Translations under genes and position numbers: made by a program
Origin: Macrocystis pyrifera
Lineage: Eukaryota > Sar > Phaeophyceae > Laminariales > Laminariaceae
Direction: 5' to 3'
Assembly (NCBI GenBank): GCA_031763025.1
Contig: JASSKH010000026.1
Coordinates: 1,736,001-1,800,000, forward strand
Length of the DNA: 64,000 bases
Part shown: positions 3,900 to 60,439 of the stretch, piece by piece
Layout of the letters: the number at the start of each line of letters is the position of its first letter
Position numbering within the stretch: position 1 is the first letter of the stretch
The notes under the pieces: generated by a model
Seen by the model: the letters and a program-made list of their open reading frames with translations, nothing else
Databases searched by the model: none
Told to the model about the DNA's origin: nothing

Positions 3900-4091
3900 G
3901 ATCCCTGCCGATCTACATTTTGTTTGGTCTCGCGGGGTGGGTATCGCCCACGTAAGGCCGAGGTTATCAATGCGCTAGTCAACGAGTCTCAGAACGACAC
4001 TGATGTCTCGCTGCTCGGCCAGCTTCGAGGTTGGTGGGCATCAGAGGTCATGGGTGACTCCCAAACGGAGTCTCTGCATTTGACTTTATGA
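3900..4091 (+). pseudogene. Short coding remnant with a SAP-like helix
   Basis: One plus-strand frame stays open from about 3900 to a TGA ending at 4091 and reads SRGGYRPRKAEVINALVNE followed by SLLGQLRGWWASEVMGD. The pattern RG----KAEVINALV resembles the second helix of a SAP DNA-binding motif. There is no start codon, and flanking splice sites are weak, so this may be an isolated exon or a transposon-derived fragment. The functional call is weak. Confidence 0.25.
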
Positions 4092-4680
4092 TCGAAGCCG
4101 CAAAATCATATTATGGCATCCCTGGTATGGCGTACTTGATTCGAACTGCTTTCGTACTCGTACATTACAGGCGCCCGATACTCGAAACTCGAATGGTCAC
4201 TCGCCTCAAGAGATCGCATCAGATCATCATCATTAACGGCTGGGGATTGAGCGTCGTCCTCGTCCGATTCGTTGCTCTTCGGTCGCTTTCCCTCCTCAGA
4301 GTTGCCCCCGCCGATTCCCCTCTTCTGGACCATTCTGGCGTGTGCCACACGTCCACAACAATGCAATGGACGCAATTCAAGCCGCACTCTTCAGATGCTA
4401 GGTGGGTCAGGAACGCGCACAGCGGGGAGCGGATGCGAACTAAAGAAACCAGCGAATCTGTGCGTACTCCTGGGCTGTGAGGTGTACCCGCGGTTGGCAG
4501 ATTGGTCGAGGTGGGGCCATGATGGCGCCATGATCCAAAATTCAAAAATATGTTTATCCCCAGACCCCAGATCGAAGAACATGGGAACGCCTTAGTATAA
4601 TATGGAAACCTACAGACAACCCGAAATGCACGCGTGCACGCTTTGCTAGGACTACAACATTTTCTCGTACCTCTTAGAGT
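4092..4680. other. Spacer upstream of a hypothetical gene
   Basis: Short overlapping open frames occur on both strands (4106-4545) but none shows a recognisable domain or clear splice boundary. A promoter for the gene at 4681 would lie here, but no TATA or initiator element is convincing. Confidence 0.4.
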
Positions 4681-18154: not shown

Positions 18155-18432
18155 TGGTTATGATACTGCCTTGACTGAGGTTGAAAGCCCGGTAATTACC
18201 TAGGTTCAGGTACTGGAATCGTACTTGTAATACTTGGAAGGCGTATGTTAGGTGGAAAATCAGGGGTTTTCAGAGGGGCATGAGCTTGGTCTCAGTCTCC
18301 GCGTGCACGAAAGAAATAAAACTGCTCTTCTTCTATCTCTAAGCAAGCATCACACGTGAGTACCAACGAGTACCGACTTGATAGGCAAACCTGTCCAGGG
18401 ATACAAAGTGTCCCGCCCGCAAGATCTTAACA
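18155..18432 (+). repeat. 5' LTR of the NADAR retrotransposon
   Basis: It starts TGGTTATGATACTGCC (relatives show TGTTATGATAC) and ends AGATCTTAACA, giving TG..CA termini with a short TGTTA/TAACA inverted repeat. AATAAA at 18315-18320 is a likely polyadenylation signal marking the R region. Length 278 bp, the same as the inverted copy at 28205-28482. Confidence 0.82.
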
Positions 18433-18434
18433 AG

Positions 18435-18452
18435 TGGCGTCGACGGCTCAGG
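18435..18452 (+). promoter_or_regulatory. Primer-binding site
   Basis: Begins TGGCGTCGACGG two bases after the LTR. TGG is the complement of a tRNA CCA 3' end. The next bases would pair with a tRNA acceptor and T-stem; the isoacceptor cannot be named without a tRNA list. Confidence 0.6.
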
Positions 18453-18549
18453 ACTTTTTCGCCTTTTAGCCGGTTCGAGTTTTTGTCACAGTTATTTTTT
18501 TGTTTGCTTTCCTGGTCTAGAGTCAGTTTTTCTCTCCGCACACTGCACG

Positions 18550-20322
18550 ATGGAGACTCATGAGGTTGGACGTCGGAGAAACCGAGGCAAGGGGAAGGAG
18601 AGCTCGAGTGACGGCCGCTACGGCCCACGGGGAAACTCTTCTCGAGCAAGTTCTCCCAGTTCCTCCTCGGACGGCAACAAACGAGCCCCCGTCCCCGAGG
18701 TTACGGGCGCTACCAGCAAGAGGCAAGTGGTTCCCTCGCTGACTGATGTTGGTTCTTCCGCTACGCTTCTCGGTCGTTCGACCATGTTCGATGACCGCGC
18801 CATGCCCATGTCATCTAACCTTGCTCACGCCCGAACATCGGCGATCGACTCCGCCGCCACTGCCGCCGCGAAAAAGCACACCGCCGACGTTCAACGGGCG
18901 TACAAAAACCTTGGAATTTCGCGCATCTCTGTCCTACCTTTTCTCTCTTCGATCAACCCTTCCGATGCCGCGCAACAACCCACTCGTTCGGCCAAGGCCT
19001 CCGCCTCTGATATTATCATGATGTGCAACGATGGCAGCCATGAAGGCCTTAGTTCTACTTATTGGATCCCCGGTTGGGAGTACCCCCTCAAGAAATCCTT
19101 CGCGCGCGCCATCGCGCCTGACAAGCCTACGACCGCCCCTCTCACTACCTTGATGGATGATTTTTTTTTACAGGTGTCGCGCGCCCTCGCAGCCGGATCG
19201 ACGGGACCGGAGGCGTTCACACTCCTCCTGAGGTTGTTGAGCAACCACTTCGACCGCACCGACACGGGGGCCAACTACACCAAGTTGCATAATTTGACGT
19301 GCCCAACGGGACCCCCTTTTGCCATTTTAGCGGTGCATTTCCAGGGGTGGTGTCGGCAGCGACGGGGACTGAGCGTGTTTTGGCACCGGGGGTGGAAGTA
19401 GTTCGGATGGCAGTGAACGAGCAGTACCCCAGCTTGATGCCCACGCTGTACCCGGGAGTTTTGGCTACGATATCGAGGCCGTTCGGCACTTTGGGCGCCA
19501 TGTGGTTGGCTTCCGAGACTCTCGCGAATAATAAGACACCTGCCATCAACGTCGAAAAATATTTTTCTTTGCCTGCTTCTTCGACGGGTGCGCGGTCATC
19601 CGCCCCGTCGGGGCCCCGGCCCGCCAATATTGGTCGCGGTCAGGGCCGGACGCTTCCCCAGTCGCCTTCTTGGTAGACGGGATCGCGCAATAATCCGCTT
19701 GTGATGAATGTCAACAAATCCATCCCTGACTGCCTCGACCCGTGGCTTGACACCTCTTCCAACTGCTGGCCCCTAGAAGACCACCACTATGCTGAAGTTC
19801 ACGCCGTTTGCATGTCCGTCCAGACCCTCTCCCCTCTGGAGCGGCCTACTTTCATCGTCCGCTCGCGCAACCGCCCTCAGCGAAAACTTCCACGAAGACA
19901 CACACTCTCTCCGACAGTGTAGACACCCCTTTCTAAACCATAGTGGTATCCTAAACCCCGACCTCGGAACGCTCGGGGACGACGGCGAGGCGTTCCGTCG
20001 TTGGCAAGAGCACATGATCAGACACCGCCGCGAGAACAATTCACGACCGAACAAACACAACCAGAAGAAACATAGGCGTCGTCCCGGCCACTCGCGCGGG
20101 CAACATCACGGCCAGGGTCAGCAGAACAGACAAGGTGACGGCTACAACACACGCGCGGAACGAGAAAACCAGCAATCTAACTCCGGCCATCACGGTGATG
20201 GTTCGACCGCTCCTGCCTCTTCCGCCCCAGCTCCCGTCTCGGGGGTTCGCTACGGTGCCTCGCATAACTCGGGCGGAAATCCGAACGGACGCCAGCCAGT
20301 CATTGTCCGCGCCGGTATCTGA
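18550..20322 (+). pseudogene. Gag-like region of the retrotransposon (frameshifted)
   Basis: An ATG at 18550 opens a basic, low-complexity N-terminus (RRRNRGKGKESSSDGRYG) that continues for about 250 residues. Near 19285 the frame shifts, after which FPGVVSAATGTERVLAPG and RPFGTLGAMWLASETL are read to a stop at 19676. A further frame at 19789-20322 encodes a highly basic histidine/asparagine/glutamine-rich tail (HRRENNSRPNKHNQKKHRRR) that may bind nucleic acid. No CCHC zinc knuckle is present. Gag would form the particle that packages element RNA; this copy cannot make it whole. Confidence 0.6.
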
Positions 20323-21195
20323 CAGGTCGACGGCGGTTCGGCTCCTCTTGCCCGCCCACCGCCGGCATCGCTGAGAAAAAAAACATTGATTTCACAAGAT
20401 GATCGCGTCCCAGGCTCGCTCAGCACTCAGCACCGACCTGCTCCGCTCCCGACCCGCGCGTTACTCCGTACTTCGGACCGACGTAACGACTCAGCTCCAC
20501 TGCTTTTACCGAGGAGCCTCCGGGCGCCTTCCCCGACGTCGGGAGCCCGCGCCTCAAACGCCGCTCCCCTCAACCTAGGCACGAGAACAAGTGCGATAAA
20601 CGCCGCTCTCCCGAACCACGCACCGCGCAGCACGACGAGTGTCGCGCCGTCGCGTCGTTTTTTCAGCGAGGGTGTCCCCCTTCTACACCTCCTGGCCATG
20701 CGGTGGTGGTCGGTTTGAGGTGCGGGAAGGCAAACACCGAAAACCCGAGATCCCGGTTGAAGCTCGACTCGGCATTTCCTCGCAATCACGGTGGCCGCTC
20801 CACGCTTTTTCCTATCAGGCAGGAGTCGACAAGATTAGCTACCTCGTCCCCCTTCCCCACCAGGTCTACAGGGCGGAAGCCCTCTCCGGTGGACCCTTTG
20901 TTGCCCCCCACCCGAGCACCGTTGTTGAAGACGTCTACAGGGTCTGCAGGCCTTCTTTCGTCTTCGTGCACGCCACTCCACGTGCGCAGCGCTCCTTTGG
21001 CTCCAGTGGAACAGCAGAAACTTGGCCCTTTCCGTCGAGCCAATGGTGACTCCACGTCCTCCGGTCAGATCAAACGGACAGCACACCCGTTAAATTCGGA
21101 AGAGTCGCAGCTCTCGTCAAGCAGAACGGGCTCAGAGCCCCCTGCCCCCTTTGGTCCAGGACAGAGATCATCGGGCGTAGTAATCTGGTGTTTTT
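20323..21195 (+). other. Linker between Gag and NADAR
   Basis: Proline- and serine-rich open segments in several frames (20386-20718, 20639-21049, 20703-21215) without a recognised domain. Probably part of the ancestral polyprotein, now shifted out of frame. Confidence 0.4.
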
Positions 21196-22023
21196 TTGTC
21201 TACGAGCAATGGTGACACAGAGCCAGTATACGTGGAACCGGACTCGTCTCGTGCACCAGGGGCTCAGTGTTCTCAGAGAAGCACACTCCCCTCCCGACAC
21301 GCCGCAACTGCGGCCACCGACGACTCGGCACCGTCGGTCTTTGATCCTACTCTCGAGTATTCAACGGAGCGGGTGGTACTGTTCTGGCAGCCCCCCTCCT
21401 ATTTTTCGCAGTGGTCCCCCTCGTCTTTTATCATCGACGATGTGTCATGTTCCTGCGCGGAGCAGTGTATGATGGCTGAAAAGGCTCGCCTTTTTCAGGA
21501 CTATGACACAGCGGAGTGGATTATGGCCTCGCCAGACCCACGCGAGCACAAACGCCTCGGTCGAGGCGTGCATAACCTCGACTGCGCTATCTGGTACCCC
21601 GTTCGGGAAGACGCCGTCCTTGCTGGTACTTTTGCTGAATTATCGCAGAACCCGGCCATGAAGAAGCACCTATTGAGCACTGGCACGCAACGTCTCGCTG
21701 AAGCCAGCCCTTTTGACCCCGTGTGGGGCATCGGTCACCGGGCAGACGACCCCGAGGCTCAAGACCCCTCCCGGTGGCGAGGGAAAAAAAATCTCGGGAA
21801 AGCTCTTTCCGCCGTTCGCGATACCCTCCACTCAAGTGAGGCCGGGTTGGCACACCCCGCCTCCTCTCACCAATTCTGCACTCCGACCACGACTGACAAA
21901 ATTCATGAGATTTCTCCAGCGCCGCCCCGCCCTTTGGCCGTGGGCCGCGCTTGCCCAGGTCCTCCCTTGGAGTTTTCGACCTATTTTTTTGACGCGCCGG
22001 CTGATCACAGCCCCGAGGTTTAG
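21196..22023 (+). CDS. NADAR (YbiA/DUF1768) domain in retrotransposon polyprotein
   Basis: The 275-codon frame contains a NADAR domain at about residues 58-212 (nt 21367-21831). Visible family motifs in order are FSQWSP (70-75), CAEQCMMAEKARLF with the conserved glutamate at 89, LGRGV (121-125), LLSTG (159-163), LAEASPFDPVWGIG (167-180) and NLGKALSAVRDTL (199-211). The family includes the riboflavin-pathway N-glycosidase YbiA and NADAR proteins that remove ADP-ribose from guanine in nucleic acid. The frame begins with TTG, not ATG, and lies between Gag and protease, so it was presumably translated as part of the polyprotein. It is the one domain of the element read through without a stop or frameshift. 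Family assignment is confident; the substrate is unknown. Confidence 0.82.
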   Translation: MSTSNGDTEPVYVEPDSSRAPGAQCSQRSTLPSRHAATAATDDSAPSVFDPTLEYSTERVVLFWQPPSYFSQWSPSSFIIDDVSCSCAEQCMMAEKARLFQDYDTAEWIMASPDPREHKRLGRGVHNLDCAIWYPVREDAVLAGTFAELSQNPAMKKHLLSTGTQRLAEASPFDPVWGIGHRADDPEAQDPSRWRGKKNLGKALSAVRDTLHSSEAGLAHPASSHQFCTPTTTDKIHEISPAPPRPLAVGRACPGPPLEFSTYFFDAPADHSPEV

Positions 22024-22039
22024 GCTGTCGCCCCTCGCC

Positions 22040-22480
22040 CCTCGTGTCGACCCCTCCCTCGCGCTGCCAGAACACGGCCCCTGCCTCGTCGGGGGCATCA
22101 TTACCCTCGATGACGCCTTTTTTACAACGAAAATCGCGATTCACAGCGGAGCTGGCGTTCTTGCACCTTTTGGGTGCGTGGTACTCCTTGACACTGGCTC
22201 CCCATAGACTTTCATCCGACGAGATGTTTTGGATCGCATGCACTCGGTTGGTGCGGCATCCATCGCTTGCGAGCAGAAATGCGCCCCTCGTTCTTGGGGG
22301 GGGGTTGGCGAATCGGCCCCCCTGAAGACTTCGACGCGTGTACGCCTGAGCGTCCAATTTTTTCGAGAAAATGAGCCTACGTGCTCCCTCGTAGTTTGGG
22401 TCTGCGCGATTCCCCCCTCAGTGATGCAGCATGCAGTACTGCTGGGACGTGACAGCTGGATGCGTTTCAATAGCCGCTCC
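22040..22480 (+). pseudogene. Retrotransposon aspartic protease (in-frame stop)
   Basis: The retropepsin motif LLDTGSP is read in one frame and interrupted directly by TAG at 22205-22207. The same frame continues with TFIRRDVLDRM and later MQHAVLLGRDSWMRF, the hydrophobic-hydrophobic-G-R-D/N-W motif near the protease C-terminus. The enzyme would cleave the polyprotein into Gag, NADAR, RT and integrase units. The stop next to the catalytic aspartate makes this copy inactive unless read through. Confidence 0.72.
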
Positions 22481-22658
22481 TACCGCTCTCCGCCACCTCG
22501 GCCGTCTGATCAACGCGATTTGGGCGAGCTGGAGTTAGTTCACCACGCCCCGACAGGCATGTCCGTGTACGCCATCGGCGGGTGGAGGCTTCCATCTACG
22601 CTACGAGGGCGCGGCATGCGTCACCCTGTCCGACGATCCTCAACTGCTTGCTGTTGAA

Positions 22659-24480
22659 TTGGTTCGAAGCGATGGCTCCCCGGCCCTCACTGGACACTAC
22701 TTGGTCGACATGATGCCCCAGCCTGACCTACCCTCGGTTGAGGAGCACTTCGTCGCCTCCGGGAAACAGCTTCTTCCCCTCGTTGTAGTGGCGCCTCTTG
22801 AACGGGGGGATATCCTCGGCATCGCCTACGTCCCACTGCTGAGCGTCCCGCTGGACGTTTTGCAGCAGGGCAACCGAGCCCCCAGCCCCCCCTGCGGACT
22901 ATCTGAGGTGTCTCCGGTCTCAGCAGAACCTGCTTCCCCCCTCGCAGCTCCAGCCTCGCCCTCGCCTGCACTCGCTGCACTGCTTGAGCGTTTGAGCCCA
23001 GACCAGCGCGCTTCGTTCCTGTGCGTCTGGGCACGCTTGCCGTCACACCTGCGGGAGGTGGCTTTTGACCTTCACGGCACGGACTGGATCTCTGAGGCCA
23101 TCGAACAGCTGGGGGGCGTTATCTGCGAATTTCCTGACGTTTTCTCGAAGTCCAAGTCGGGTTTTGGTTCCTGCTCGTCGATGCCTGTCGTGATCTCGGT
23201 CCCGGGAGGAAGCGCCCCTGTCACGTCCAGGCCGCACCGCATCAATCCCATCCTGGCCAAGGAAATGGAGGCCACCTTGGATCAGTACCTAGCTGCAGGC
23301 CTGATCCAGCACTCGACCTCTCCGTACTCGAGCCCGCTGATGGTCATCCCGAAGAAGTCTGAAGGCGTGCGGATCACCGTGAACTACAAAAAACTCAACT
23401 AGATCAGCAACCTCAGCCAGCTGCCTATTCCTCGCGTGGACCAAGACCTCGACTCCCTGGGGAAGGGGCGGGTGTTTTACCTCTTCGATTTGGTCTCCTC
23501 GTTCCACCAGATTACCGCGCACAAGGATACCGTCCCTCTCACGGCGTTTGGCATTCCCACGGGCCTCTACGAGTGACTCGCCATGCCCCAAGGCAACAAT
23601 GCTTGGCCCGGCTGGTTCGTCAAAGTGATTAACGAAGTCATTAAAGGTCTGGCACAGGTGGCGGCCTACCTCGATGATGTGATCGTTTTCGACTCTGATC
23701 CGACGGCCCACGTCACGATGATACGAGCCCTCTTCGAACGCCTGCGCAAACACAACTTCAAGCTCTCCCCCTCGAAGGCTCGCCTCGACGCCACGGACGC
23801 CAACTTTCTGGCTCACTCCGTTTCACCCGCGGGTATAAGCCCAAATGTGGAAAAAGTTTCGGCTTTGATGGAAATGCCCATGCCCCAGAACCTCAAGCAG
23901 GTCCGCGCCCTGATGGGCGGCGTGAGATATTATCGTAAATTCCTGCCCGACCTGTCTAAACGGATACGTCCTCGTCCTCTCACTGCCCTTCTACGGAAGA
24001 GGGTCAAGTACGTCTCTACGCCGGCTATGGAAGTTATCGTCCGCTAGATCCTCGCCGAGCTCGCTGCCCCACCGATTTTGGTCTTCCCTGACTGGGACGC
24101 CGTAGCCAACGGCTCCCACCCCTTCCACGTGTACTGCGACGCCTGAATCGACGATTTTGGTGCCGCGCTAGAACAAGCACAACCGGACGGCTCGGTACGG
24201 CCCATTGCTTATATCAGCCGCGCTACGCTTGATTCCGAGAGGCACTGGACACCGTCGGACCTGGAAGCTGGCAGCATTGTCTGGGCCATCAAACGACTCC
24301 GAGGCTACCTGTGGGGCACGAAGTTTCGAATATGTTCGGACCACAAAACACTTGAGAGCATCCGCAAAATAGGGGACCACAATACGCGCGTCCAGCGGTG
24401 GCTCGAGTTATACCCTCGAGTACCGCAAGGGCAGCGCCAACGGAAATGCTGATTTTCTCTCCCGTTTGCTGGAGCCCGCC
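22659..24480 (+). pseudogene. Reverse transcriptase and RNase H (multiple stops)
   Basis: One frame runs through a proline/serine-rich lead, then GLIQHSTSPYSSPLMVIPKK and GVRITVNYKKLN (RT motifs 1-2), VFYLFDLVSSFHQI (catalytic aspartate), AAYLDDVIVFD (YxDD) and VRALMGGVRYYRKFLPDLSK. RNase H follows with HVYCDA, DLEAGSIVWAIKRLRGYLWG and ICSDHKTLE. In-frame stops are at 23400-23402 (TAG), 23574-23576 (TGA), 24045-24047 (TAG) and 24144-24146 (TGA). Near 24405 the frame shifts through a small deletion before YTLEYRKGSANGNADFLSR. The order and motifs are diagnostic of Ty3/gypsy. Confidence 0.82.
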
Positions 24481-25433
24481 ACAGAACACGATCGCAGTGG
24501 GTCTAGCTGCCTTAACCCCGTCGAGGACGGTGGTATCTTCCTCATCCGAGCCTGCGGGCTTCGCACTCGCTCTTCGCCGACCCCTGGTGTCGGTTTGGAT
24601 GGGCTGGTGCCCCGCAGTGAAAGTGCAGTCTTGGGTGGACTGCCTTTCACTTCTTCGGATTTTCGCGATCTTCGCGCACATGGGCCACGTATGAGGATTA
24701 ACGACCTCTCTGCTCCTTCGGGGAGATTCGTCGCTCGTGTATCTGCTCCCGTCGCCACCGTCGATCGCCGTCCTGGCTTGAGGGTTTTTTCCCCCCCCGC
24801 CAACTCCGCTTTCGCTTCGGTTTTTGTCGTACCCTCCGGGGGCGACTAGGGCTCTGCAGAAGTCCCCGCTGCAGCGACGATTGTCGCCCAGCGCGCTCCT
24901 CTCCCGACGAGCACTCTACAAGAAGAAGATTCCGCCGTGATCACTGATCCGGCCGCGTCTCCCCCTTTGCCGCCTGGCAACCCGGCGCCTCATTACATCT
25001 TGCCGCCTTCAGGCCGCATCTCCAATCGGACGCGCCGACGAACAGTCGTTGCCGCTGGCACCGCGCCGCCTGCTGTTGATTCTGGCTTCGGGCCCGGCGG
25101 GGCCCCTAGACCACCCGCCCGGCGTGCTGTCAAACCGCCGCGAGCCCCACGGCCGCGACCGCCCGACCCCGTCGTTATCGCCCCGGCTCCTGCCGCCTCG
25201 CCGATCCCGACGATACCCATTCCGTGTGTCCGCGACCACGCCGAGCCCGTGGGGACTCCTCTTTTATGGCTTCCGCTGCCGAGTGACGCACCGCCCGTCA
25301 CCACGACCGATTTGGACGCTCTCGGCGGCCGAATTTCAGTTCGTTGATTCCGCAGCGCGCTATTCGCACTCCGACTGGGCTCGGGAACAACAGGCCGAGC
25401 CCGCGTGCAACGCCGCCATGCGCTACATAGCCC
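24481..25433 (+). pseudogene. Proline-rich linker between RNase H and integrase
   Basis: Several open frames of proline/arginine/alanine-rich composition (for example RRAVKPPRAPRPRPPDPVV near 25120-25180), with a TAG at about 24847. No domain is recognised. This length of linker before the integrase zinc finger is within the range seen in Ty3/gypsy polyproteins. Confidence 0.5.
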
Positions 25434-26390
25434 TTGGCCGCCCGGAAGTTTTGCCAGTCGACTTTTTGTCGTGTTCCCCTTCCCACCAGCGCCCTCCCTT
25501 TCCGGACGTTCAGGAGCTGGCTAACAAAGGTCGCTTGCACACCACCGATGCGGGCATCGTGTTACTCGTCCGACAGCCGTCCCCCCCCCCCTGCGTCGGA
25601 TACGCGACGCCCGGTGGGTCGTACGGCCTGTTTATTGAACGCCGAGCCTATTCACATTTATGCTCCGCTGCTCATGCGCCCATGGGTCATGCAGGCTTGC
25701 CATTCCACGGCTTTCGGCCACCTAGGAACCGCGCGCACCCTACGTATGCTCGAGTGTTTCTATTGGTGGATCGGCATGAGCATCTACACACGGTGGTGGT
25801 TACGCAACTGCTTAAAGTGCCAAGCACGGAAAACGTCGCGGCAGACGGTCCGGTGGCCCACCATCACGTTGCCCTTGCCAGAAGGGCCCGGCATGCCGTC
25901 AGCATCGACTATTTCGGCCCTCTCCAGATGACGCCTCGAAGTAGTACCTACATCTTGCTTTTTACTGATCGTTTCAGTCGCCGAGCCGACATGTACGCCG
26001 TCACAGCGGCAGAGTTCACCGCTGAGGACACGGCTAAGATTCTCATCAACCGGTATATCCCCCTTTTGGGGGTGCCCGCGCAGCACCCTCTCGGACAACG
26101 GCCTCCAGTTCTGCTCCAAGCTTTCGCACGCCGTATATCAGCTTCTCGGGGTTCGAAAAATTACCACCAGCTCCTACCACCCAGACGGCAACGGTAGGGT
26201 GGAACGTGTAAACCACACGACGGCCCAGATGCTAGCATTGGCCGTCAACGAGCTCCAAAACAACTTGGATGAACAGCTCCCTCACGTCGAATTTGCATAC
26301 AACAATTTCGTCAGCACCACCACGGATTTGGCTCCCAACGAGGTACATATGGGTCGGCTGCCACGCCTCCCGTTGCCTTACCGTTCATAG
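25434..26390 (+). pseudogene. Integrase (frameshifted)
   Basis: The zinc-binding region is read at about 25660-25830 with HSTAFGHLGTARTLRML and CLKCQARK (H-H and C-C ligands). The frame then shifts and the core reads AVSIDYFGPLQMTP (first catalytic Asp). It shifts again near 26085 to show SDNGLQFCSKL (second Asp) and SYHPDGNGRVERVNHTTAQM (Glu), ending at a stop by 26390. All three catalytic residues are present but in different frames. No chromodomain is evident. Confidence 0.75.
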
Positions 26391-26503
26391 GGGTGGGAAT
26401 GGGCTTTGAGGAGCCGCATCTTCGACTCATGTTCTAGTTCGTGGAATCGGGGTTTCCATGAATTTCCATAACTCTGCGTATACGGCTGATCAGAGTGGGC
26501 CAG
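26391..26503 (+). promoter_or_regulatory. 3' untranslated region and polypurine tract zone
   Basis: Non-coding tail between integrase and 3' LTR, conserved in the two inverted copies (27518-27742 and 28483-28690). AGAGTGGGCCAG just before the LTR is the best candidate for the plus-strand primer. Confidence 0.5.
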
Positions 26504-26772
26504 TGTGATGATACTGCTTTGCATGAGGTTGAAAGCCCGGTAATTACCTGAGTTCAGGCACTGGGATCGTATTTACAATACTTGGAAGGCGTATCTTAGG
26601 TGGAAAACCAGGGGTTTTCCAGAGGGGCACGAGCTTGGTCTCAGTCTCCGCGTGCACGAAAGGAATAAAGCTGCTCTTCTTCTATCTCTAAACCACCAAG
26701 ACACGTGAGTACCAACGAGTAGCGGTAAACCTGTCCAGGGATACAAAGTGTCCCGCCCGCATGATCTTAACA
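26504..26772 (+). repeat. 3' LTR of the NADAR retrotransposon
   Basis: Starts TGTGATGATACTGC, ends TGATCTTAACA, with AATAAA at 26664-26669. Aligns end to end with 18155-18432 apart from scattered substitutions and a small deletion near the 3' end. Confidence 0.82.
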
Positions 26773-26797
26773 TTCGCATGCGTATCGTCCGCTCGAT

Positions 26798-27517
26798 GTT
26801 AAGAGGTCGGGACACTTTGTATCCCTGGACAGGTTTGCCTATTAAGTCGGTATTCGTGGGTACTCAGGTGTGTTGTTTGCTTAGAGATAGAAGAAGAGTA
26901 GATTTATTATTTTCGCGCACGCGGAGACTGGGAGCCAAGCTCGTGCCACGCTGGGAAAGCCCTGGTTTTCCATCTAAGATACGCCTCCCAAGTACTACAA
27001 ATACGACCCCGATACTGTGGTGGAAATCGAGTTTGTAAGCTTAAACTCATGTAGCGTTTGTCGTAACATTTTTAGTCTACATTTCCCTACCATAGCGTCG
27101 CAGGCAGGGCGTGAGATTATGAAGAACGAGGTCCGTGGTTCGATTCTCGCCTTCATCCCCCGAAACAAGGAAAAAAACGGGGATCATCTCATGCTCAAGA
27201 ACCTGTAAAACTCACTCACTTAGAGAACACCTAGGAAGGAACGATGAGAGCAACGCGATAATTGCATACTGTGAGTCCAGTACCGAAAAATCGGAGGTAA
27301 AACTTGGATACTAAGAGTCTCATCGGGGTTCCTGACTTACTCGCAAGAAGAGATAAGTCAGGTTTAGTGAGGGAGAATGTGGTGGAAATCGAGTTTGTAA
27401 GGCTTAAATTCATGTAGCGTTTGTTACGTAACGTTATTTTTAGTCTATATTTCCCAACAATACTTGAACCCAAGTAATTACCGGACTTTGAGTCTCATTC
27501 AAGGCAGTATCATAACA
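26798..27517 (-). repeat. Inverted LTR of the same family, interrupted by a TRIM-like element
   Basis: On the minus strand the termini are TGTTATGATACTGCC and CTTAACA. The LTR sequence is split at 27015/27460 by a 444-bp insertion. It lies only 25 bp from the plus-oriented 3' LTR, forming an inverted pair. The adjoining 27518-27742 is the matching internal 3' tail of the element. Confidence 0.78.
27016..27459 (+). mobile_element. TRIM-like mini-retrotransposon nested in an LTR
   Basis: Direct repeats at 27016-27092 and 27378-27459 start TGTGGTGGAAATCGAG and end CTACCA or CCAACA. They are flanked by ATAC at 27012-27015 and 27460-27463, a 4-bp target duplication confirmed by comparison with the uninterrupted LTR. 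Inside, TAGCGTCGCAGGC directly follows the left repeat and resembles the gypsy primer-binding site, and GTGAGGGAGAA directly precedes the right repeat as a polypurine tract. The 285-bp interior has no coding capacity but contains a tRNA T-arm-like GTGGTTCGATTC near 27136. Confidence 0.75.
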
Positions 27518-27742
27518 CTAGCCCACTCTGATGAGTCGTATTTGCATAATTATGGGAAAATCATGGGAACCCCGATTCCACGCAGACTAGAACATATCAG
27601 TCGAAGATGCGGCTCCTCAAAACCCACTCCCGCACCTCTAAACGGCGAGGCAATGAAGCCGACAAGGTACATAAAAAAAGGAAGGCCTAGCCTTAAGGGG
27701 CAGGAACAAATCGCGGACAAGATGTGGAGTTTTATTTTTTAA
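27518..27742 (-). repeat. Internal 3' tail of an inverted gypsy fragment
   Basis: Reverse complement of the region before the 3' LTR (26390-26503), including CTAGCCCACTCTGATGAG and AGATGCGGCTCCTC, and matching 28483-28690. Truncated at about 27742, so no pol domains are retained. Confidence 0.65.
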
Positions 27743-28204
27743 ATGGAGCAGTGTGGCCAAAATCGGGTGCCTTTCTATTTCAGTGACCGCGAAGGCCCCA
27801 GGACGCCATCATCTCATTAATTGGTCAACGCCGGCCACCACCGGGTACCCGATGCTGGCCACTTTTGCGCCGGGTAGACCCGATTTTTGCCCCTTATCCC
27901 CCCCCCCCCCCCCCTGTTGGGTTGGTGTCGGTTGGCAACGACACTGTAAAACATGCCGCTCACTAGGTGAGCTGGACATCCAGGGTACCGTTTTTTTTTT
28001 TTTTTTTTTTTTTGGCGGTCGCCCACAGCTGGTCGTGGAGTTAGATCGTTTGTGCGAGGTAAAGAACCTTTCCTCTGCACAAGGGAGTTGATCGTATCAC
28101 GTGTGTTCAAGGTAAGGCACCCAGGAGGCACTTACATTGTACTCCCATTGCTGTCTCTGGAAGTGGCTACACCGGAAATTAAACTAACTCATTGAAGCTG
28201 TCAT
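27743..28204. other. Spacer with C16 and T23 homopolymers
   Basis: Contains CCAAAATCGGGTGCC and CGGGTACCCGATG motifs, a run of 16 C (27899-27914) and a run of 23 T (27991-28013). The last 55 bases (28150-28204, TCTGGAAGTGGCTACACCGG onward) are repeated at about 32104-32160. Confidence 0.6.
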
Positions 28205-28482
28205 CTGTTAAGATCAACGGTTGCCGGACACTTTGTATCCCTGGATAGGTCTGCCTTTTAAGTCGGTAAACATTGTACCCACATGTGTTGTTTGCTTAGC
28301 TATAGAAAAAAGCAGTTTTATTCCTTTCGTGCACGCGCAGACCGAGACCAAGCTCGTGCTCCTCTGGAAAACCCCTGGTTTTCCATCTAAGATACGCCTT
28401 CCAAGTACTACAACTACGTTCCCAGTGACTGAACCCAGGTAGTTACCGGGCTTTCAATCTCATACAAGACAATATCTCAACA
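28205..28482 (-). repeat. Inverted LTR of the NADAR retrotransposon family
   Basis: Uninterrupted 278-bp LTR in reverse orientation, from TGTTAAGATC at the left to CTCAACA at the right. It is followed by internal 3' tail sequence (28483-28690), so it is the 3' end of a truncated inverted copy rather than a clean solo LTR. Confidence 0.78.
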
Positions 28483-28690
28483 CTAGCCCACTCTGATGAG
28501 CCGTATTTGCAGAATTATGGGAAATTCGTGGAAACCCCGATTCCACGAACTAGAACATGAGTCGAAGATGCGGCTCCTCAAAACCCACTCCCACACCTCT
28601 GAACGGCGAGGCAACGAAGCCGTCAATGTACGTAAAAAAAAATAAAGGGAAGACCTAGCCTTAAGGAGCAGGAAGAAATCGTCGAACAAA
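28483..28690 (-). repeat. Internal 3' tail of a second inverted gypsy fragment
   Basis: Matches 27518-27742 closely (CTAGCCCACTCTGATGAGCC, then GAAGATGCGGCTCCTC, then GCCTAGCCTTAAGGAGCAGG). No coding domain remains. Confidence 0.65.
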
Positions 28691-58899: not shown

Positions 58900-60060
58900 T
58901 CACAAAGAAGCTCGCAGTCTATGCCTCAACACTTTCCCTGCGCTATTTCTTGGAAGCGCCGGGACAACGTCTATTCGGCGCGGTCGCTTGTAGTGGCTGA
59001 GATGCAGCCCGCAAAACTTATCCAACACTGTCTTGGCTCGATCACAAGTGATCGCCCCCGCCGGGTCCTGCGCGGCGTCTTTCAACACTACGCTCGCCGC
59101 GACCTTCTCTCCCAATCGTTCGTCGCTGACACCGTAAACTGCTGCCTCGGCAACCCAGTCGTGCCTCAACAAAACGTCCTCGACTTCGCTGGCGTGCACG
59201 TTCTCCCCCCCCGTTTTGATGATGTCCTTCACTCGTCCAACGACAACCAATCGGCCTGTTTCCTCGTCAAGACGACCGAGATCGCCCGTTCGCAGCCAGC
59301 CGTCGGGGCGCAAGGCTTTGGCGGTGAGGTCTGGCCTCCCCCAGTAGCCCTCCATTACGTGGGGGCCGCGAGTTTCCACTTCTCCGATAGTTCCATTAGG
59401 GGCGAGGCAGGCATGGCGATCGTCGGTCGGTCGACGTTCGACAACTCTGATTTCGACGTGCTCCGCCGTAATACCTCCTGCAGCCCTCACCGCTGGGTCG
59501 TTTTCTCTCGCTGTGTTTTGAACGCGAAGCGTTTCGGTCGAGCCGTGCGCCAGGTCAGCCGGCGACACCTCTCCAACTCCGCCACGGGCGAGAGGCGGCG
59601 AGACAGCGAACGTCATCGTGGAACCCGCCTCGGTGCAGGCGTAGGTCTGGACGAACCTAGCGCGGGGCATGCGGTCTCGCGCCAGACGCTCGAGGCAGCG
59701 AGACATCACCTGTCCGCCAACGACCACGACGAGTACGCCTGCCAGAGGCGACACGCCCGCCCCCACGGACGCCGCCACACTCTCCGACACCGACGATCTG
59801 CTGTTGGTGTCGTTGATCGGTTCGCTGATGAGCATGTGTAGCATAGTAGGGACCGCTACAAGGTAGTTGACCCGTCCTGTTTGCACTGCGGCTCTGCCAG
59901 TGGCCGGGGAGAAGCGAGGGACGAAGACGTGGCAACCAGCGACCATGGTGACGGCAAGGGATGCGCTTAAGCCGCCTACGTGGAAGAGGGGCATCACGTT
60001 GAGAAATGTGGTCGAAGACGAGAGGCCAATGTGGACGCACTTGGCAGCCGCTTGCAAAAC
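58900..60060 (-). CDS. AMP-binding acyl-CoA synthetase, last exon (2-succinylbenzoate-CoA ligase-like)
   Basis: C-terminal two-thirds of an ANL-superfamily adenylating enzyme that makes acyl-CoA from acid, ATP and CoA. The exon begins at 60060 after an acceptor TTATCGACAG and reads VLQAAAKCVHIG, then MPLFHVGGLSASLAVTMVAG, VQTYACTEAGSTMTF (motif A5), EVETRGPHVMEGYWG, WLRTGDLGRLDEETGRL (A7, catalytic Asp), VVVGRVKDIIKTGGENVHAS (A8) and ALPRNSAGKVLRHRL (A10 lysine). The PLFHVGGLS..AG--VF-P-F segment is closest in feel to plant AAE14/MenE, which activates 2-succinylbenzoate for phylloquinone synthesis; other small acyl-activating enzymes remain possible. The ATP-binding P-loop (motif A3) must lie in upstream exons, which I cannot find in the 4 kb to the right. 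Either the intron is long or the locus is truncated. Confidence 0.75.
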   Translation of the reverse strand, partial: VLQAAAKCVHIGLSSSTTFLNVMPLFHVGGLSASLAVTMVAGCHVFVPRFSPATGRAAVQTGRVNYLVAVPTMLHMLISEPINDTNSRSSVSESVAASVGAGVSPLAGVLVVVVGGQVMSRCLERLARDRMPRARFVQTYACTEAGSTMTFAVSPPLARGGVGEVSPADLAHGSTETLRVQNTARENDPAVRAAGGITAEHVEIRVVERRPTDDRHACLAPNGTIGEVETRGPHVMEGYWGRPDLTAKALRPDGWLRTGDLGRLDEETGRLVVVGRVKDIIKTGGENVHASEVEDVLLRHDWVAEAAVYGVSDERLGEKVAASVVLKDAAQDPAGAITCDRAKTVLDKFCGLHLSHYKRPRRIDVVPALPRNSAGKVLRHRLRASL

Positions 60061-60439
60061 CTGTCGATAAAGTCGATACGCAAGGCTGGGTGAGTTTATT
60101 TAACACTTCATCGATGTTATCACGTCTACTATCACAGCTGTAGCGAAGAGAGAGGCAAATATTTTATCTAGAAAAGCCAACTTGGTGTGATCGTGCTAAT
60201 TGTGGTGTACGTAAGAAAACAAACGCGAGGCAATCGCACAATTGAACCAACGACACAAATATGCGCTGATGGCCCAACAAATAATTAAATAAAACCCCCT
60301 CGCAGGGCCAACAGAAGTTGTACCTGGTATACTGTAGACTATAGCTATGCCTATGTACTGCTGTAGACTAATATTACGAGCTGTCCATTTTTCAATTTTA
60401 CTTCACAAGTTATCTCGCACTAAATTGAACGCTGAGCAA
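60061..60439. other. Intron or spacer upstream of the acyl-activating exon
   Basis: On the minus strand this precedes the acceptor at 60061-60070. It has AATAAATTAAAT-type sequence near 60280 and TACCTGGTA at 60321. No further exon is recognised. Confidence 0.45.

What the first reader, a model, noticed from the sequence alone, without database searches (positions are those of the whole stretch)
21196..22023. NADAR (YbiA/DUF1768) domain embedded in a Ty3/gypsy polyprotein between Gag and protease
Seen: all main NADAR motifs (FSQWSP, CAEQCMMAEKARLF, LGRGV, SPFDPVWGIG, NLGKALSAVRDTL) in a 275-codon frame inside an element with LTRs, PBS, protease, RT, RNase H and integrase. Known: NADAR/YbiA proteins cleave N-glycosidic bonds in riboflavin intermediates or remove ADP-ribose from guanine, and occur near ADP-ribosylation defence systems in bacteria. 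Inference: the element carried its own enzyme to reverse host ADP-ribosylation of its nucleic acid, or to tune NAD/ADP-ribose metabolism during replication. I am not sure whether NADAR-bearing retrotransposons have already been described.
Basis: partly seen in the sequence, partly recalled or inferred. Interest (0 to 1): 0.9.

Follow-up and report, generated by a model that had tools for sequence, protein, structure and literature searches.

The report
NADAR enzyme inside gypsy retrotransposon polyprotein
A broken copy of a gypsy-type jumping gene, probably from a brown alga, carries a NADAR enzyme domain between its coat and protease parts; such elements were reported in the brown alga Ectocarpus in 2025, and the domain here still has the main active-site residues of an enzyme that strips ADP-ribose from nucleic acid.

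Summary
Window 21382-21828 encodes a NADAR domain (Pfam PF08719, 139.6 bits, E 1.5e-40); its AlphaFold model (pLDDT 96.4) matches the oomycete NADAR-ADP-ribose structure 8bau. It lies in a decayed Ty3/gypsy element: LTRs 87.7% identical, RT nearest Ty3, RNase H and integrase pieces. It is no chance insertion: 22 of 259 NADAR-bearing relatives have LLDTGSP-type protease motifs downstream in the same frame, collinear with the window. NADAR and protease are about equally conserved in four relatives; their linker is not.

Most likely it is an active N-glycosidase clearing ADP-ribose from the element's nucleic acid; that is inference. Host species was not identified; 13 own-genome requests did not complete.

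The parts
18157..18432 (+). 5' LTR (aligned stretch; TG...CA ends at 18161-18432)
   Evidence: 87.7% identical to 26505-26772 over 277 columns; ends read
18550..20322 (+). Gag region by position, broken into several frames; basic end, no CCHC zinc knuckle found
   Evidence: position only; frames 18385-19401 and 19777-20322 have no Pfam hit above cut-off; zinc-knuckle pattern absent in three frames of 18401-22000, though broken frames could hide one
20386..21366 (+). Pro/Ser-rich linker upstream of NADAR (end set by me at the NADAR match)
   Evidence: 20386-21182 collinear with relatives P0012 and P0003 at 65-78% identity, in two frames
21184..22023 (+). open frame that carries the NADAR domain (279 codons, stop to stop)
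21382..21828 (+). NADAR (YbiA family) domain
   Evidence: Pfam PF08719 139.6 bits, E 1.5e-40; AlphaFold pLDDT 96.4, Foldseek 8bau E 4.0e-12, TMq 0.88
22064..22537 (+). aspartyl protease region (broken), DTGSP motif
   Evidence: collinear with P0126, P0127, P0128, P0132 at 45-56% identity; only sub-threshold Pfam aspartyl-protease hits in relatives
22539..24047 (+). post-protease region and reverse transcriptase, in pieces
   Evidence: Pfam RVT_1 E 6.7e-10 for 23577-24044; Ty3 RT 4ol8 E 1.2e-18; N-terminal RT end to 4ol8 only E 0.073; 22587-22964 collinear with relatives at 46-51%
24147..24452 (+). RNase H
   Evidence: Pfam RT_RNaseH E 1.1e-23
25431..26390 (+). integrase: zinc-binding part and part of the core; C-terminal end not found
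   Evidence: Pfam Integrase_H2C2 E 3.6e-14 for 25431-25928; 25932-26387 to Ty3 Gag-Pol 7q5b E 1.5e-08, Pfam rve only E 0.005, below cut-off
26505..26772 (+). 3' LTR (aligned stretch; TG...CA ends at 26509-26772)

Best explanation
This is a decayed copy of a Ty3/gypsy LTR retrotransposon family, probably of a brown alga, whose polyprotein region carries a YbiA-family NADAR domain between Gag and protease (shown, except the host). Its relatives have kept that domain and most of its ADP-ribose pocket across several deep lineages (shown at protein level). Most likely the domain is made as part of the Gag-Pol precursor, so it is packed into the particle; the element's protease frees it or leaves it on a mature product, and it hydrolyses N-glycosidic ADP-ribose adducts, most probably on guanine, from the element's RNA or its cDNA so that reverse transcription and integration are not blocked (precursor, packing, release and substrate are all inferred). 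The window copy itself is broken and presumably makes no working polyprotein.
For: Domain. Element. Fusion kept in relatives: P0126, P0127, P0128, P0131, P0132 and P0134 (519 to 815 aa) each read NADAR, then LLDTGSPQS, in one frame. P0126, P0127, P0128 and P0132 are collinear with window 21334-22964. Of 259 relatives with a NADAR match, 22 have an LLDTGSP-type motif after it, 10 of them with a nearly whole NADAR; a looser motif gives 28; the rest include bacterial, free-standing and cut-short proteins. Constraint: among P0126, P0127, P0128 and P0131 the five between-lineage pairs share 49-55% in NADAR, 51-62% in protease and 22-28% in the linker. Active site: E43, K50, R79, W89, R93, E125, D130 and W133 (numbering of PMC11543638) are all present in the window; mean between-lineage identity is 0.866 at these eight against 0.529 over all 150 columns, permutation p 6e-4. 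Published activity: an oomycete NADAR (PMC11543638), four E. coli or phage subtypes and a myxobacterial YbiA (PMC11125620) remove guanine-linked ADP-ribose in vitro. RNA-virus precedent: NADAR in polyproteins with the RNA polymerase, proposed to counter host ADP-ribosylation (PMC9503650).
Against: No substrate, expression or packaging evidence exists here. Y84 and D86 of the oomycete enzyme, which hold the adenine and its ribose, are L and C in the window and mostly F and variable in relatives, so the ligand may differ. R93 is not general: four of seven group-D rows have G, C, C, S, and six of seven Nannocystis-type rows have C. Among the 22 retroelement rows E43, K50, R79, D130 and W133 are each replaced in one (W133 also gapped in one) and E125 in two. 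YbiA also cleaves riboflavin intermediates (stated in PMC11543638), so a metabolic role is possible. In-vitro guanine de-ADP-ribosylation did not predict protection in cells for YbiA and phage NADARs (PMC11125620). Conservation was measured on proteins only: no DNA of relatives was available for dN/dS.
Confidence: 0.45

Rival explanations
1. The domain is kept for binding, not catalysis: it holds NAD-, ADP-ribose- or cap-like ends of the element's RNA and serves packaging or RNA processing. PMC12477816 suggests processing of RNA intermediates, without saying whether by binding or catalysis.
For: PMC12477816 proposes RNA processing (passages); at least two of the three NADAR domains of nematode SNA-3 are needed for its function in trans-splicing, with no known substrate (PMC9303266, passages).
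Against: E43 and K50 are kept in 21 and E125 in 20 of 22 retroelement rows. [quoted passage not shown]
Confidence: 0.2
2. The domain acts on small molecules, such as riboflavin intermediates, free ADP-ribose or cyclic ADP-ribose signals, to blunt a host stress or NAD-depletion response.
For: YbiA acts on riboflavin intermediates (as stated in PMC11543638); PMC9503650 argues that phage NADARs mostly target small ADP-ribose derivatives (passages).
Against: An enzyme for the cytosol need not be fused into a Gag-Pol precursor (inference); PMC9503650 argues that eukaryotic RNA-virus versions primarily target macromolecules.
Confidence: 0.2
3. Passive hitch-hiker: a NADAR gene captured and kept without benefit.
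For: The window copy is decayed, with 12% LTR divergence.
Against: NADAR is about as conserved as the protease while the linker is not; pocket residues are conserved beyond the rest of the domain.
Confidence: 0.05
4. NADAR is a chance insertion in this copy alone.
For: None found.
Against: Diverged relatives share the same order.
Confidence: 0.01

Closest known systems
Ectocarpus Gypsy lineage with NADAR (e.g. Gypsy-12_Ec32), PMC12477816
   Different: The window copy is broken, and no chromodomain or integrase C-terminus was found in it. A NADAR from Ectocarpus sp. CCAP 1310/34 (P0189) groups with retroelement P0126, not with the window's own branch.
NADAR domains in Tx1 LINE ORF1 of Crassostrea gigas (reported in PMC12477816)
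   Same: NADAR carried by a retrotransposon.
   Different: Non-LTR element, divergent domain, animal host; not examined here.
Free-standing NADAR proteins of brown algae (P0044 Pylaiella, P0061 and P0069 Ectocarpus, P0063 Scytosiphon; P0055, an unnamed EukProt entry, groups with them)
   Same: Same NADAR clade as the retroelement domains (97/96; 98/85).
   Different: 209-252 aa; four of the five have a Cys/His-rich N-terminal segment (read by eye); no protease or other Pol part in the proteins. Their genomic surroundings were not seen.
Phytophthora nicotianae NADAR, PDB 8bau
   Same: Fold (TMq 0.88) and most of the ADP-ribose pocket; active on guanine-ADP-ribose (PMC11543638).
   Different: Not part of a retroelement polyprotein as far as the paper passages say; 28% identical in the structural alignment; adenine-stacking Y84 not kept in the window.
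NADAR in polyproteins of nidoviruses and other positive-strand RNA viruses (PMC9503650, passages)
   Same: NADAR fused to the replicative polyprotein of a genomic parasite.
   Different: RNA viruses of animals, no reverse transcription; relation to the window's domain not tested.

Membership tests
NADAR superfamily (PF08719) | Score above Pfam cut-off over the whole domain | tested here: met
   139.6 bits against 35.1, profile positions 2-162 of 163
NADAR superfamily (PF08719) | YbiA-like fold | tested here: met
   8bau E 4.0e-12, 2b3w E 6.8e-08, the only two hits under 0.001
YbiA subfamily of NADAR | Glutamate at the E125 position (aspartate in BC4488/DarT1-type, histidine in phage; PMC11543638) | tested here: met
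   E in the window; E in 103 of 121 aligned rows of the first search, 6 gaps, 12 other letters
DarT1-associated (BC4488) NADAR antitoxin | Aspartate at that position | tested here: not met
   E, not D
NADAR guanine-ADP-ribose hydrolase | Enzymatic removal of ADP-ribose from guanine | not testable with these tools
   Needs an assay; residues E43, K50 and E125 present
Ty3/gypsy (Metaviridae) LTR retrotransposon | Two LTRs flanking the internal region | tested here: met
   87.7% identity
Ty3/gypsy (Metaviridae) LTR retrotransposon | Order RT, RNase H, integrase, with RT nearest Ty3 | tested here: met
   (nearest among solved structures; no RT tree made)
Ty3/gypsy (Metaviridae) LTR retrotransposon | Primer-binding site, polypurine tract and target-site duplication | tested here: inconclusive
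   Flanks read; no clear TSD, no host tRNA to compare, polypurine tract not examined
[quoted passage not shown]
   Order NADAR then protease in relatives and window
Ectocarpus NADAR-Gypsy lineage | RT phylogeny within that lineage | not tested
   Gypsy-12_Ec32 sequence not available; no RT tree made
Ectocarpus NADAR-Gypsy lineage | Putative chromodomain after integrase (described for Gypsy-12_Ec32) | tested here: inconclusive
   No Pfam chromodomain hit in the integrase pieces scanned; 26390-26505 was not scanned and the C-terminal part looks missing from this copy

The most novel reading that the evidence does not exclude
The NADAR is a counter-defence: brown algae (or a wider stramenopile group) restrict retroelements by ADP-ribosylating their nucleic acid, and a gypsy lineage has long carried, inside its particle, the enzyme that removes the mark. 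Brown-algal free-standing NADARs and retroelement NADARs form one clade, so the domain may have passed between host and element in one direction or the other, possibly as a domesticated retroelement enzyme now in host use.
Probability: 0.2. Interest if true: 0.8.

Novelty: new member of a known kind. Interest (0 to 1): 0.4.

Why it matters
If the domain is catalytic in the particle, nucleic-acid ADP-ribosylation would become a candidate host defence against retroelements in algae. So far it is best known from bacterial toxin-antitoxin systems and proposed for RNA viruses. The clade shared by free-standing and retroelement NADARs also gives a testable case of gene exchange between a genome and its retrotransposons.

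Tried and rejected
Direct bacterial origin of the retroelement domain (transfer was raised in PMC12477816): a tree that groups 22 retroelement rows with seven Nannocystis-type rows to the exclusion of the brown-algal proteins was rejected, p-AU 0.010 (the test was chosen after seeing the tree). A more ancient bacterial source for the whole clade remains possible: Nannocystis-type rows lie in the neighbouring part (94/95).

Giant-virus or phage origin: viral contigs gave no relative for the single sequence. 11 of those 80 went into a tree and none fell in the retroelement clade. The rest were not placed.

One capture or several: a single retroelement clade is not rejected (p-AU 0.422), but its position relative to the brown-algal proteins differs between trees (87/29; 81/75). 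Direction of transfer is open.

ART-toxin neighbours beside Nannocystis-type NADAR: five of the 80 loci were read by ORF list only and I recognised no ART by eye; no domain search was done there. Rfam on the window: nothing at gathering score. Host identity: not settled; the brown-alga reading rests on named relatives. Own-genome search, wanted for copy number and dN/dS: not completed.

Mended on re-checking: the protease-motif count was redone with a stricter motif, because one of the 28 loose matches (P0020) may be chance.

Full report
Observation. The frame 21184-22023 is open for 279 codons. Pfam finds NADAR at residues 67-215, 139.6 bits, E 1.5e-40, so the domain lies at 21382-21828. A phmmer search of the PDB finds the oomycete NADAR 8bau at E 1.9e-10 and YbiA 2b3w at only 0.091. 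The AlphaFold model of 21337-21840 on 52 sequences has mean pLDDT 96.4 and pTM 0.89. Foldseek gives 8bau (E 4.0e-12, TMq 0.88) and 2b3w (E 6.8e-08) as the only matches under 0.001. This is far beyond chance.

The element. The LTR alignment 18157-18432 with 26505-26772 is 87.7% identical, with TG...CA ends at 18161-18432 and 26509-26772. Between them lie pieces of RT (nearest Ty3 among solved structures, 4ol8 E 1.2e-18), RNase H (E 1.1e-23), an integrase zinc-binding domain (E 3.6e-14) and integrase core (Ty3 7q5b E 1.5e-08; Pfam rve only E 0.005). The Gag region has no domain hit above cut-off in the two frames scanned and no CCHC knuckle pattern. The protease is seen by motif and by collinear relatives. 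Pfam matches in five relatives' pieces are below cut-off (best E 0.041), though all four families named are aspartyl proteases, and a PDB profile search found nothing. The frames are broken, so this copy is a fossil. The primer-binding site and target-site duplication were not established.

Relatives. The first protein search gave 227 hits, 120 listed; a search with the 480-aa relative P0006 gave 35; a search with the Ectocarpus free-standing protein P0069 gave 628, 120 listed. All three queries carry NADAR, so NADAR-less kin would be missed. Six relatives of 519 to 815 aa read NADAR, then LLDTGSPQS, in one frame. By tblastn, P0126, P0127, P0128 and P0132 are collinear with window 21334-22964, where the window uses three frames. 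Of 259 relatives with a NADAR match, 22 have an LLDTGSP-type motif after it, 10 with nearly whole NADAR; a looser motif gives 28. One further protein, P0130, has the motif without NADAR but starts just after the NADAR position, so it looks cut short. No relative seen holds RT together with NADAR; the order to RT rests on the window.

Constraint. Among four relatives open over this stretch, the five between-lineage pairs share 49-55% in NADAR, 51-62% in protease and 22-28% in the linker between them; the sixth pair is within one lineage (78, 82 and 62%). P0006 was compared too; its protease piece is short and gives 26-31% while its NADAR gives 47-53%. The oomycete contact and catalytic residues listed in PMC11543638 (section 12 read) map onto chain 8bau with a constant offset of two, all 13 checked. 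The window has E43, K50, K75, G78, R79, V81, W89, R93, E125, D130 and W133; it has L for Y84 and C for D86. I tested eight (E43, K50, R79, W89, R93, E125, D130, W133) and left out K75, G78, V81, Y84 and D86: mean between-lineage identity 0.866 against 0.529 over 150 columns, permutation p 6e-4. The 22 retroelement rows were hand-chosen; of the 21 besides the window, 9 show a protease motif and the other 12 were assigned by flanks or by place in the first tree. Losses: E43, K50, R79, D130 and W133 in one row each, one gap at W133, E125 in two rows, R93 in four group-D rows and replaced by K in five group-A rows.

Origin. A quick tree of 174 rows puts the window, the protease-bearing rows and the brown-algal rows on one side, support 94, not starred. 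A careful tree of 61 of those rows gives 97/96 for the branch that holds all 22 retroelement and 7 brown-algal rows. A second tree of 58 rows with 11 viral and 11 bacterial loci gives 98/85 for 22 such rows (16 retroelement, 6 brown-algal; P0172 left out). Four named free-standing proteins (Ectocarpus twice, Scytosiphon, Pylaiella) and one unnamed EukProt entry form one group. Grouping the retroelements with Nannocystis-type bacteria without those proteins is rejected (p-AU 0.010), and a single retroelement clade is not (p 0.422). Which way the domain moved between host and element is open: P0126 and P0189 fall outside the brown-algal proteins, with weak support, and inside the retroelement group. 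P0189 is an annotated Ectocarpus protein that I labelled brown and retroelement because of its place beside P0126. A stress-induced Ectocarpus NADAR protein, Esi0017_0056, is described in PMC7922944 (passages read); its authors judged lateral transfer likely.

Prior art. [quoted passage not shown] Searches of the held library for NADAR with retrotransposon, NADAR domain, DUF1768, YbiA with transpos, and NADAR with Gypsy and LTR showed no other report that I recognised from the rows listed; one search listed 20 of 104 papers, the others all of theirs. Most of those papers were seen only as listings. The finding is therefore a new member of a known kind.

Mechanism. Shown: domain, predicted fold, pocket, position before the protease, protein-level constraint. 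Known from papers: NADARs of several subfamilies remove ADP-ribose from guanine in vitro (PMC11543638, passages and section 12; PMC11125620, abstract and the first of two parts of the results), and RNA viruses carry NADAR in replicase polyproteins, with a proposed role against host ADP-ribosylation (PMC9503650, passages). Inferred: that the retroelement enzyme is packed with Gag-Pol and clears ADP-ribose from element RNA or cDNA. RNA processing or binding and small-molecule substrates remain live rivals.

Limits. No DNA of relatives and no own-genome search were available. Rows for trees and tests were hand-chosen from three searches biased to NADAR.

Noticed in passing
window 26371-28689: A cluster of further LTR-related copies in both orientations (26805-27010, 27465-27720, 28206-28616) sits just downstream of the element. 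The copy at 28206-28616 also matches about 130 bases upstream of the 3' LTR, and the element's own integrase departs near there; I infer an internal deletion that removed the integrase C-terminus.
   Followed up: partly
window 58903-60099, - strand: A probable host gene piece for an acyl-CoA synthetase-type enzyme (AMP-binding E 2.1e-24, AMP-binding_C E 4.6e-17).
   Followed up: no
L081 3343-3786: In Nannocystis pusilla an open frame that by eye resembles YbiA (SNFAPFSIKLGGKRWPTSEHYFQAQKF) lies directly upstream of the NADAR gene at 4001-4528, suggesting two NADAR-type genes in tandem.
   Followed up: no
protein P0158 (Ectocarpus sp. CCAP 1310/34): A 301-aa annotated protein falls among the retroelement NADARs in both careful trees, with weak support, but shows no protease; it may be a retroelement piece or a domesticated copy.
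   Followed up: no
proteins P0145-P0148 and P0150: A separate group of 519-576 aa proteins from unnamed contigs (grouped). The two whose sequence I read, P0145 and P0148, begin with NADAR and continue with a long unidentified C-terminal part.
   Followed up: no
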